Source: a virus. Taken from it: a stretch of DNA of 37,168 nucleotides. The stretch lies in the IMG/VR virus record IMGVR_UViG_3300017971_000154, positions 1-37,168 of that record. One strand, written 5' to 3'. Position numbers and translations under genes: made by a program. Shown one piece after another: positions 34,292 to 36,353 of this stretch. Position 1 is the stretch's first letter, and each line of letters opens with the position of its first letter. The notes beneath the pieces were generated by a model. It saw nothing but the letters and a program-made list of their open reading frames with translations, was not told the origin of the DNA and searched no databases.

Positions 34292-34734
34292 ATAAATTCT
34301 CCTTTATTTTGTAATATTTCTTCTATGCTGCAATCTAATATTTTAGCCGCTTCTTTTAAAATACAATCAAATAGTTCTTTAAATCTCTTTTGAGACATAT
34401 TAGTAAAAGATATTGACACCGGGTAAAACTCTATTTTACCATCTAGTCTTTGTACTGGCTCAACAAATCCGTGCTCTAATTCTACAGCTTTAATAAATAA
34501 ATACGGATCTTTATTATTCCACATTGAACTCTCTGGAGCAGAATATACTAATAATTGCGCAACTGCAAAAACTAATCTGTGAAATTCGGCACTTCTATTA
34601 TTGCTTATGTTTATAGACATTTTTTTATTATTGTGCTTATTGATAAATTCATGCCCGGAGTTATAAAGACAAAATATTGCTTTTTTTCCTATATCGTTAG
34701 GAGTAATTTCTTTTATTTGTGATGCTATTTTCAT
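34288..34734 (-). CDS. DUF1367-like protein, 148 aa
   Basis: The core RSAEFHRLVFAVAQLLVYSA, FIKAVELEHGFVEPVQRLDG and YPVSISFTNMSQKRFKELFD follows the DUF1367 pattern of phage accessory proteins, in which NRxFHRKxFALL and PxSISFAxMxxxEF are conserved. These proteins often lie near recombination or nuclease genes, but their activity is unknown. It overlaps neighbours by 4 nt on both sides. Confidence 0.65.
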   Translation of the reverse strand: MKIASQIKEITPNDIGKKAIFCLYNSGHEFINKHNNKKMSINISNNRSAEFHRLVFAVAQLLVYSAPESSMWNNKDPYLFIKAVELEHGFVEPVQRLDGKIEFYPVSISFTNMSQKRFKELFDCILKEAAKILDCSIEEILQNKGEFM

Positions 34735-35318
34735 AGTTCGTTCATTATTAGGAAATTTCTAAATTTATTTGAGATTACATTATTATCTTTATATGATATG
34801 CTTTTAATAACATTATTGAAAACACTACCTTCATTATCGCAAAAACCTTTTTTTTGTCCGTAATCACAATTATTGCAATAACCAATTCCATTTTTATCTT
34901 CATAGTAGTATACTTTGCAAAAAATACAGCCATTACTATATATAAGGCCACCTAAAGGAAGATTATTATTTAAACAAAAATATAAATCCTCTATAAACTC
35001 TTTACAGTCTTCAATATCAAGGTTATCTAACAATAAAACGTCTTCTTCGCTCCAGTAATCTATATAATTAAAACTGCCAGCGTTGTAGATATTATGTTTT
35101 AATTTCATCCATTTATCGATAAATACTTTTTCAATTTCCATAATTACCACCTTTAATTTTGGTCGATTTTTAGAACCGAATAAAATACAGTCTAAAAAAT
35201 TTACATGTTCTTCACCGACCCAGATATTATTCGCTATTCCTACTTTAACGAATTTTTCTTTAACTTCAGGATCTCTGGTCAACCTCCCCGAAACAGTTAC
35301 TACGTTAACATCTGACAT
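34731..35318 (-). CDS. Truncated SSB N-terminus fused to an unrelated protein, 195 aa
   Basis: Residues 2-50 read as the start of an SSB OB-fold: NVVTVSGRLTRDPEVKEK, VGIANNIWVGEEHVNFLDCI. At LFGSKNRPKL the OB-fold stops halfway and the frame runs without a stop into a different protein. That part has its own AGGTGG and ATG at 35141 (136 aa), an acidic helical region and a CIFCKVYYYEDKNGIGYCNN Cys cluster. The SSB piece is therefore probably a decayed second ssb joined by deletion, and the real product may begin at 35141. A complete SSB is encoded at 4846-5211. Confidence 0.7.
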   Translation of the reverse strand: MSDVNVVTVSGRLTRDPEVKEKFVKVGIANNIWVGEEHVNFLDCILFGSKNRPKLKVVIMEIEKVFIDKWMKLKHNIYNAGSFNYIDYWSEEDVLLLDNLDIEDCKEFIEDLYFCLNNNLPLGGLIYSNGCIFCKVYYYEDKNGIGYCNNCDYGQKKGFCDNEGSVFNNVIKSISYKDNNVISNKFRNFLIMNEL

Positions 35319-35339
35319 AACTACCTCTATTTTATATAA

Positions 35340-35730
35340 ATCGGATTACTATTCCATCCGTAAAGTCAACTCCGCTACGGCCTAATAACGAAGATTTTAA
35401 AGACTCCTGATTGTTGCGCTTAAAACAGAGGCGTCAAGAGTATCTTCTGGAGTTACTATTCCACTCGTTAAGTCAATTCCTAATTACTATTACAGTAGTT
35501 GTTTTATATCAATACTGTTTCGATATTTACTCTGTTACCCTGAGTACGGGGGTGCTTCTTGGACACCAGCGCCCGCCTAAATTATCCCATCTTATTAAGG
35601 CGTAATGCATATTTAACAGGGTGCATTTACGTGGGTAAAGATTTGCACTTTACATGCCTTCTGTGAAACACAACCTCATTCCGGCTTACTACTATCAATG
35701 TGTTTACCTATTCCACCACCACACATTATT
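35340..35730 (-). other. Gene-free structured region with paired hairpins
   Basis: No credible ORF occupies this 0.4-kb block, the longest gene-free stretch. Two related 27-bp elements (35347-35373 and 35454-35480, 23 of 27 identical) each provide the loop of a hairpin: 35342-35360 (stem CGGAT/ATCCG) and 35450-35466 (stem GAGT/ACTC). The 9-nt loop TACTATTCC is identical while the stems differ yet still pair. Further pairs are AACAGAG/CTCTGTT (35424-35430 with 35530-35536), GTAAAG/CTTTAC (35635-35653) and GTAATGCA/TGCATTTAC (35602-35630). It could be a structured leader RNA, a regulatory site or an origin. Confidence 0.5.
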
Positions 35731-35889
35731 TTATTTTCCATCTTCTTTGATCGTATTCTCACAAATACTCTTTACTGCTGATAAAGCCATTATTAAAATA
35801 TTAACCTGGTCTTTATACTTTTTTGTACTGGATGCCATATTTATCCCATGTTCTATAATTTCACATAATATTTTAGATTGATTTTCCAT
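35731..35889 (-). CDS. Small helical protein, 52 aa
   Basis: Its ATG overlaps the upstream stop (TGATG), and GAGGTGG is upstream. The protein is helical with two cysteines (KILCEIIEHGINMAS, VKSICENTIKEDGK). It is the last gene before the structured gap. Function unknown. Confidence 0.6.
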   Translation of the reverse strand: MENQSKILCEIIEHGINMASSTKKYKDQVNILIMALSAVKSICENTIKEDGK

Positions 35890-36353
35890 CACACCACCTC
35901 GTTAATATTCCATAAATCGGGGATATCTTCATTAGTTTCCCGGTATTCCTCATTACCTTTATATCTAGCAATATGACAATAATCCCCATAAGCTCTAAAA
36001 CCAAAATCACTCAAGTTAGAATATCTGTTTAATAACCACATCTCGTCTTTATGGTCTCTCACTAAAACCAATTCATCCGGCTCAATGTCGAACACTCTAT
36101 CTTCTTTTAAGTCTTCTGGAGTAAGTCGCATGAACTCTTCTGGAGTTAATTCTATGGCTTCGTATTCTCTGAAGTATTTAAAAGTATCTATACTACTATA
36201 AACCATTTTCCCTTCTTCAAGATACAAAAATAATGCGCTCGTGTTAATAGGTACTCCAGTACCATTAGACCATCTAAACCCGTTAGCCAAAACACCCTTT
36301 TGAACTTTTATATTTGTCTCTTCGTCTTTCACGTATACTTTGTAATATTTCAT
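35889..36353 (-). CDS. Hypothetical phage protein, 154 aa
   Basis: The start is ATG 36353 after GAGG. The sequence FRWSNGTGVPINTSALFLYL is typical of a widespread family of small phage proteins of unknown function in which this W-S/N-G motif is kept. A central ELTPEEFMRLTPEDL repeat and DIEPDELVLVRDHKDEMWLL follow. No enzymatic motif. Confidence 0.65.
   Translation of the reverse strand: MKYYKVYVKDEETNIKVQKGVLANGFRWSNGTGVPINTSALFLYLEEGKMVYSSIDTFKYFREYEAIELTPEEFMRLTPEDLKEDRVFDIEPDELVLVRDHKDEMWLLNRYSNLSDFGFRAYGDYCHIARYKGNEEYRETNEDIPDLWNINEVV

What the first reader, a model, noticed from the sequence alone, without database searches (positions are those of the whole stretch)
35340..35730. Gene-free block with two hairpins that share a loop but differ in stem
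The loop (TACTATTCC on the plus strand, GGAATAGTA on the minus) is identical in both hairpins, while stem bases changed on both sides and still pair (GGAT/ATCC versus GAGT/ACTC). This is covariation inside one genome. Neighbouring long-range pairs and local hairpins, and higher GC than the surroundings, suggest a folded RNA or a duplicated protein-binding site. I know no family matching it.
Basis: seen in the sequence. Interest (0 to 1): 0.72.

Follow-up and report, generated by a model that had tools for sequence, protein, structure and literature searches.

The report
Phage tRNA-like RNA without anticodon
The gene-free stretch contains a piece of RNA folded like a transfer RNA whose codon-reading arm has been replaced by an unrelated, fast-changing segment; the same RNA, apparently never described, occurs in hundreds of viruses of bacteria, including classic ones such as SPP1 and phi3T, so it points to a common but unknown use of tRNA look-alikes by phages.

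Summary
In detail: the block is gene-free and holds two hairpins (35342-35360, 35450-35466) with identical 9-nt loops and compensated stems. They are a diverged 28-nt repeat with no homologue found, and remain unexplained.

The important thing in the block is elsewhere: minus strand 35628-35725 is a tRNA-like element. Homologues lie in at least 155 IMG/VR contigs, in Firmicutes prophages, and in Bacillus phages SPP1, phi3T and Goe24 and Lactobacillus phages LP65, phiJL-1 and Sha1. A covariance model built without the window finds it at 73.9 bits (E 4.6e-21).

The fold is strongly supported: a 7-bp acceptor-like stem, a D-arm, an unusual 6-bp T-arm with loop UGNAAAU, and a covarying D-loop/T-loop pair (G-C, A-U, C-G, U-A). 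The anticodon arm is replaced by a hypervariable 30-90-nt insert; no CCA or conserved discriminator. Rfam 15 and ARAGORN do not call it; I found no description.

Function is inferred: a non-decoding tRNA mimic, cotranscribed with phage genes and probably trimmed by host tRNA-processing enzymes, acting in trans (about 0.4), or a cis processing/stability signal (about 0.3). Phages also encode a second, distinct kind of anticodon-armless tRNA-like gene.

The parts
35628..35725 (-). tRNA-like element (whole)
   Evidence: model R2, built without the window: 73.9 bits, E 4.6e-21 over 35625-35729; R1 77.1 bits
35719..35725 (-). 5' strand of the 7-bp acceptor-like stem P1 (UGUGUGG)
   Evidence: pairs with 35628-35634 (two G-U); P1 pairs covary in relatives, 93-98% paired
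35628..35634 (-). 3' strand of P1 (CCACGUA); no CCA follows
35717..35718 (-). UG linker, equivalent of tRNA positions 8-9
   Evidence: position in the alignment; conservation partly imposed by the search pattern
35700..35716 (-). D-arm: GUG / loop GAAUAGGUAAA / CAC; loop base G35708 pairs with T-loop C35645
   Evidence: middle D-stem pair U-A 33, C-G 24, no mismatch; loop-loop pair G-C 47, A-U 6, C-G 1, U-A 1, G-U 1, 1 mismatch
35655..35699 (-). hypervariable insert in place of the anticodon arm (44 nt plus the A before U48); only a weak GCC/GGC helix here
   Evidence: family-wide helix H1 next to the T-arm is significant (Fisher P 1.5e-23) but weak in this copy (p 0.34)
35654..35654 (-). invariant U, equivalent of U48 (Levitt pair with A15)
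   Evidence: 57 of 57 sequences; this base was not in the search pattern
35635..35653 (-). T-arm: 6-bp stem GUAAAG/CUUUAC, loop UGCAAAU
   Evidence: 99.4% of stem cells paired, 5 of 6 pairs changed on both sides in relatives
35731..35892 (-). upstream ORF, 53 aa (weak PHROG 4038); stop codon 5 nt before P1
   Evidence: direct reading
   Evidence: direct reading
34731..35318 (-). downstream ORF, starts like a single-strand DNA-binding protein and then departs from it
   Evidence: PHROG 44 on residues 1-21 only, E 0.003

Best explanation
The block encodes, on the minus strand at 35628-35725, a member of a widespread phage RNA family derived from a tRNA (the D-arm is that of tRNA-Leu). SHOWN: 7-bp acceptor-like stem, D-arm, 6-bp T-arm, D-loop/T-loop base pair as in a tRNA elbow, no anticodon arm, no CCA, hypervariable insert; sense orientation with the neighbouring phage genes, often filling the gap between a stop codon and the next ribosome-binding site, sometimes in tandem, sometimes inside tRNA clusters. 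INFERRED (about 0.4): it is transcribed with its neighbours, trimmed at the acceptor-like stem by host tRNA-processing enzymes (RNase P at the 5' side, RNase Z or exonucleases at the 3' side), and the stable L-shaped RNA acts in trans as a non-decoding tRNA mimic that occupies a host or defence enzyme that handles tRNA bodies; the variable insert would be the lineage-specific contact surface. The confidence given is for the identity (a conserved tRNA-like RNA, not a tRNA), not for the inferred mechanism.
For: Homologues first found by blastn in unannotated stretches of Bacillus phages and Dulem virus 33, then by patterns in IMG/VR (35 loci; at least 120 more) and in genomes (32 loci, 2 of them true tRNA-Leu). 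Pair counts on 57 sequences without the window: 98.5% of cells paired against 73.4% shuffled, covariation 0.720 against 0.198, 0 of 500 shuffles as high. Independent set of 84 matches in 79 further contigs shows the same pairs. The loop-loop pair was left free (N and N) in all patterns and still covaries through all four Watson-Crick types. P1 ends sharply at 7 bp: 93% or more inside, 42-56% outside against 39-46% expected. True tRNA-Leu genes score 30-41 bits, elements mostly 58-92. Prevalence: Lactobacillaceae 15 of 151 genomes, Bacilli 5 of 200, Pseudomonadota 0 of 150. Position varies (portal/scaffold, late activator to terminase, SSB/polymerase, tRNA clusters), which fits a trans-acting RNA better than control of one gene. 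Members with the same P1 and T-stem can have unrelated inserts.
Against: No expression, processing or phenotype data. Nothing identifies a target. Discriminator base 73 and CCA are not conserved, so aminoacylation is unlikely. The T-stem has 6 bp, one more than tRNA, so processing by RNase P is not assured. This copy's insert has only a weak helix, and minimum-energy folding prefers another pairing (-19.9 against -16.2 kcal/mol without tertiary terms). Strict conservation of D-arm and T-loop letters is partly imposed by the search patterns.
Confidence: 0.8

Rival explanations
1. A cis-acting tRNA-like signal: the element sits in polycistronic phage mRNAs and is cut by RNase P (as tRNAs punctuate mitochondrial transcripts), or blocks exonucleases, so separating or stabilising the flanking messages; the RNA itself has no target.
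For: Sense orientation with both neighbours in 30 of 61 cases where both were assigned, against 3 with both opposed; often 2-30 nt from the stop and start codons; acceptor stem of exactly 7 bp; a terminator-like site within 150 nt downstream in 21 of 141, against 2 of 141 one kilobase further.
Against: Also found in tRNA clusters and next to other structured RNAs, where no punctuation is needed; neighbours differ from phage to phage; a processing signal alone does not explain an insert of 30-90 nt with a selected helix.
Confidence: 0.3
2. Decaying phage tRNA-Leu genes without function.
For: Clear descent from tRNA-Leu-type sequence; LP65's copy overlaps a stretch annotated as pseudogene 'tRNA-OTHER'.
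Against: Compensated changes in every variable stem and in the loop-loop pair, an invariant U48, and a shared non-tRNA T-loop UGNAAAU across very different phages show selection for this altered fold.
Confidence: 0.03
3. A translated tRNA variant (for instance an intron-bearing or frameshifting tRNA) whose anticodon arm lies in the insert.
For: The window's insert can form a 4-bp stem with a 7-nt loop (AGCC-GGAAUGA-GGUU).
Against: No common 7-nt loop in the inserts; no CCA, no conserved discriminator; ARAGORN and Rfam do not call it a tRNA.
Confidence: 0.05
4. The two hairpins reported by the first reader are a duplicated binding site or operator-like element for a phage protein, independent of the tRNA-like RNA.
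For: Repeat and compensation beyond chance; the copy at 35342-35360 lies just upstream of the SSB-like start codon.
Against: No homologue in IMG/VR or annotated phages, only two copies, no candidate protein. The shared TGGAATAG string with the D-arm is suggestive but model R2 gives the region only 3.6 bits.
Confidence: 0.3
5. Part of the block is a remnant of a coding sequence (the repeat reads G-V/I-D-F/L-T-D/S-G-I-V in one frame).
For: Open stretches of 27-28 codons.
Against: No protein match in phages at E up to 10, none in the rest of the window, frames end within 30 codons.
Confidence: 0.05

Closest known systems
tRNA-Leu (type II tRNA; Rfam RF00005)
   Same: 7-bp acceptor stem, U8, D-arm sequence GYGGAAUNGGUARAC, A15 with U48, elbow pair between D- and T-loops, a helix just before U48 where type II tRNAs have the long variable arm.
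   Different: No anticodon arm, 6-bp T-stem, T-loop UGNAAAU instead of UUCRANU, freely covarying elbow pair (nearly always G19-C56 in tRNAs), no CCA, no fixed discriminator.
tmRNA tRNA-like domain (RF00023)
   Same: tRNA-like acceptor and T-arm with a large insert instead of an anticodon arm.
   Different: Full D-stem here; far shorter insert without tag reading frame or the tmRNA pseudoknots; no tmRNA call by ARAGORN or Rfam; CCA absent.
Plant-virus tRNA-like structures and vertebrate mascRNA
   Same: tRNA mimics embedded in longer viral or noncoding transcripts.
   Different: Different sequence, position and, for the plant elements, a 3'-terminal CCA that is charged; recalled from general knowledge, not compared here.
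ROOL (RF03087) and GOLLD RNAs
   Same: Phage-encoded structured RNAs of unknown function, common in Lactobacillales and rumen phages and near tRNA islands (PMC12286853); ROOL lies about 0.5-0.6 kb upstream of the weak matches in phage ATCC 8014-B2.
   Different: Much larger, unrelated sequence and fold.
skipping-rope RNA (RF02924)
   Same: Phage RNA near tRNA genes; occurs in four of the same loci.
   Different: Separate RNA; no match in the window.

Membership tests
tRNA (canonical) | 7-bp acceptor stem | tested here: met
   cols 5-11 with 132-138 paired 93-100%, chance level beyond
tRNA (canonical) | D-arm stacked with T-loop through 19-56 and 15-48 contacts | tested here: met
   col 22 with col 121 covaries; U48 invariant in 57 of 57; geometry itself not tested
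tRNA (canonical) | anticodon stem with 7-nt loop | tested here: not met
   replaced by insert without common hairpin of this kind
tRNA (canonical) | 5-bp T-stem and UUCRANU T-loop | tested here: not met
   6 bp and UGNAAAU; T-loop letters other than N were in the pattern, so variants would be missed
tRNA (canonical) | discriminator identity and CCA end | tested here: not met
   pos 73 U24 A20 C8 G5; CCA 2 of 57; enzymatic CCA addition not testable
tRNA (canonical) | recognised by tRNA models | tested here: not met
   ARAGORN none, Rfam none
tmRNA | tmRNA covariance model and tag reading frame | tested here: not met
any of 4227 Rfam 15 families | gathering score | tested here: not met
   window 0 matches; elements in L009, L010, L025, L028-L033, L097-L104 unmatched
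new tRNA-like family described here | score well above true tRNA-Leu with a model that excludes the window | tested here: met
   73.9 bits against 30-41 for tRNA-Leu
cis-regulatory leader of one gene (riboswitch-like) | constant downstream gene | tested here: not met
   terminase, scaffold, polymerase, primase, helicase loader and unknowns follow it
RNase P substrate | cleavage at P1 position 1 | not testable with these tools
   needs in vitro cleavage or 5'-end mapping

The most novel reading that the evidence does not exclude
Phages commonly encode a class of anticodon-free tRNA bodies that never decode: this tRNA-Leu-derived family with a swappable insert, plus a separate group of 54-63-nt tRNA-like genes with acceptor, D- and T-arms but only an 8-14-nt linker where the anticodon arm should be. 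They would act as trans-acting tRNA mimics against host or defence enzymes that handle tRNA.
Probability: 0.35. Interest if true: 0.9.

Novelty: new variant of a known kind. Interest (0 to 1): 0.78.

Why it matters
A structured RNA present in roughly one in ten Lactobacillaceae species genomes sampled and in model phages such as SPP1 and phi3T has apparently escaped annotation because tRNA finders need an anticodon arm and Rfam has no model. It makes a question testable in laboratory phages: what does a phage gain from a tRNA that cannot decode? Several public records carry spurious or doubtful gene calls over it (Dulem virus 33, phi3T, LP65).

Tried and rejected
Thermodynamic folding of the whole block: no signal. 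Flanking 159-aa protein as bait: no relatives; terminase as bait: one distant locus. Hairpin patterns: six chance-level hits, then none. Coding-remnant reading of the repeat: no matches. An H-type pseudoknot between the 5' part of the insert and the H1 loop looked convincing by eye (CTAGG/CCTAG in Goe24 and phi3T, a 9-bp pairing in L082) but is not significant over the family (Fisher P 0.25), so I do not claim it. Sigma-70 reading of TTGACT in the repeat: no -10 at the right spacing. Aminoacylation as tRNA-Leu mimic: no conserved discriminator or CCA. Literature: nine completed searches gave no description and one more on truncated tRNAs found none in phages; large surveys such as PMC8040213 could contain it as an unnamed candidate, which I could not check.

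Full report
WHAT WAS REPORTED. The two hairpins are exactly where stated. On the + strand they read CGGAT-TACTATTCC-ATCCG (35342-35360) and GAGT-TACTATTCC-ACTC (35450-35466). They belong to a 28-nt repeat at 107-nt spacing that shuffled sequence does not produce. Seven of 33 aligned bases differ, and four of these form two compensated pairs; simulated divergence gives that rarely (0.1% or less). The block 35319-35730 has no convincing ORF and GC 0.399 against 0.281 and 0.321 beside it. The folding energy of the block is ordinary on both strands. I found no relative of these hairpins, so their role stays open.

WHAT ELSE IS IN THE BLOCK. A sensitive blastn of the minus strand against annotated phages gave one recurrent short match, 26 of 27 bases, to unannotated stretches of Bacillus phages of the Goe3/SBSphiJ group, and a second to Dulem virus 33. 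Reading these stretches showed a shared layout: an acceptor-like stem, a D-arm like that of tRNA-Leu, a long variable segment, and a T-arm with loop UGCAAAU. ARAGORN and Rfam call nothing there.

THE FAMILY. A pattern that fixed only D-arm and T-loop letters, and left free the two loop bases suspected to pair, found 35 IMG/VR loci. All had an acceptor-like stem and T-stem with changed but complementary sequences. Named carriers include SPP1 (between gene 9 and scaffold gene 11), phi3T, Goe24 and phiNIT1-like phages, and Lactobacillus phages phiJL-1, LpeD, Sha1 and Lenus; LP65, Lb and ATCC 8014-B2 have diverged or long-insert versions.

STRUCTURE. On 57 sequences without the window, 98.5% of pair cells are standard pairs (shuffled 73.4%) and the covariation score is 0.720 (shuffled 0.198; sliding the partner by 1-3 columns gives at most 0.192). 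Thirteen of 17 pairs show changes on both sides. The D-loop/T-loop pair reads G-C 47, A-U 6, C-G 1, U-A 1, G-U 1, one mismatch; in 84 further matches there are A-U and U-A cases again, two G-U and one mismatch. In tRNAs the corresponding G19-C56 is nearly fixed (established knowledge). U at the place of U48, not in any pattern, is invariant in 57 of 57. P1 has 7 bp and stops there; the T-stem has 6 bp. The insert is 30-90 nt in most, over 150 in some, and shows one significant general feature, a helix H1 whose 3' strand abuts the AU before the T-stem, where type II tRNAs carry the long variable arm. A pseudoknot is not supported family-wide. There is no CCA (2 of 57) and no fixed base 73.

THE WINDOW'S COPY. 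A covariance model built without it finds it as the only significant match in the window: 35625-35729, minus strand, 73.9 bits, E 4.6e-21, far above true tRNA-Leu genes (30-41 bits). It starts 5 nt after the stop codon of a 53-aa ORF. Its P1 has two G-U pairs, its elbow pair is G-C, its H1 is weak. With the energy model alone, an alternative pairing is favoured by 3.7 kcal/mol, not counting tertiary contacts. It has the family's core, but this copy could be less stable than most.

DISTRIBUTION AND CONTEXT. Model matches: 15 of 151 Lactobacillaceae genomes, 5 of 200 in the class of G010 (Bacilli), 1 of 291 in the class of G003 (Clostridia; the known one), 1 of 148 Bacteroidota (the known one), 0 of 150 Pseudomonadota. 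Neighbours are phage genes: portal, scaffold, terminase, late transcription activators, SSB, polymerase, primase, tail fibre. The element is usually in the sense of its neighbours, sometimes tandem (L015, L082, L128), sometimes in tRNA clusters. Twenty-one of 141 have a terminator-like site within 150 nt downstream against 2 of 141 in the control stretch. In one group of 25 with identical P1 and T-stem, inserts range from identical to unrelated.

HOW IT PROBABLY WORKS. Shown: fold, conservation, phage context, sense transcription unit by position. Inferred: cotranscription; trimming by host tRNA enzymes at the 7-bp stem; action in trans as a tRNA body that cannot decode. I favour trans action (about 0.4) over a cis processing or stability signal (about 0.3) because locations and neighbours vary and because the insert is replaced while the core stays. 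A second observation points the same way: phages also carry 54-63-nt tRNA-like genes with acceptor, D-arm and ordinary T-arm but only an 8-14-nt linker instead of an anticodon arm. I saw them in phages Lb and phiJL-1 next to the element, then in at least 120 IMG/VR contigs. Their acceptor strands covary (88% paired against 45% shuffled), and the pattern is absent from 301 bacterial genomes.

LIMITS. IMG/VR and phage collections may leave out near relatives of the window. Letters fixed in the search patterns cannot be counted as conserved. Covariance E-values are rough. There is no expression or functional evidence. The literature search covered open-licence full texts only.

Noticed in passing
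L102:2376-2433 (-), L097:1458-1517 (+), L224-L320 and others: Anticodon-armless tRNA-like genes of 54-63 nt in phages: full acceptor, D-arm and canonical T-arm, joined by an 8-14-nt linker; at least 120 IMG/VR contigs, acceptor strands covary, none in 301 sampled bacterial genomes.
   Followed up: partly
window 34731-35318 (-): ORF begins like a single-strand DNA-binding protein (to about residue 50) and continues into unrelated sequence with its own Met; looks like a recombination joint next to the block.
   Followed up: no
L049:957-1003: SPP1: directly after the tRNA-like element lies a mini tRNA-like sequence of about 46 nt (acceptor strands ACGGAC/GTCCGT, T-arm CGGGTTCAATTCCCG) with no room for an anticodon arm.
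   Followed up: no
L099:1156-1483: LP65: pseudogene 'tRNA-OTHER' and hypothetical orf80 are annotated over a long-insert version of the element.
   Followed up: no
L011:3011-3322: Dulem virus 33: hypothetical protein XCD07596.1 is called over the tRNA-like element and the skipping-rope RNA; probably not a protein.
   Followed up: no
L102:1967-2110 (-): Phage Lb: the element's T-loop reads UUCGACU (tRNA-like) and its insert contains a second T-arm-like hairpin GCCGGTTCGACACCGGC.
   Followed up: no
L029:1155-1219, L050:399-464: DUF3800-VIII RNA (RF03075) lies near the element in two loci.
   Followed up: no
window 35342-35466 and 35705-35714: The string TGGAATAG occurs in both reported hairpins and in the D-arm of the tRNA-like element; could be chance or partial duplication.
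   Followed up: partly
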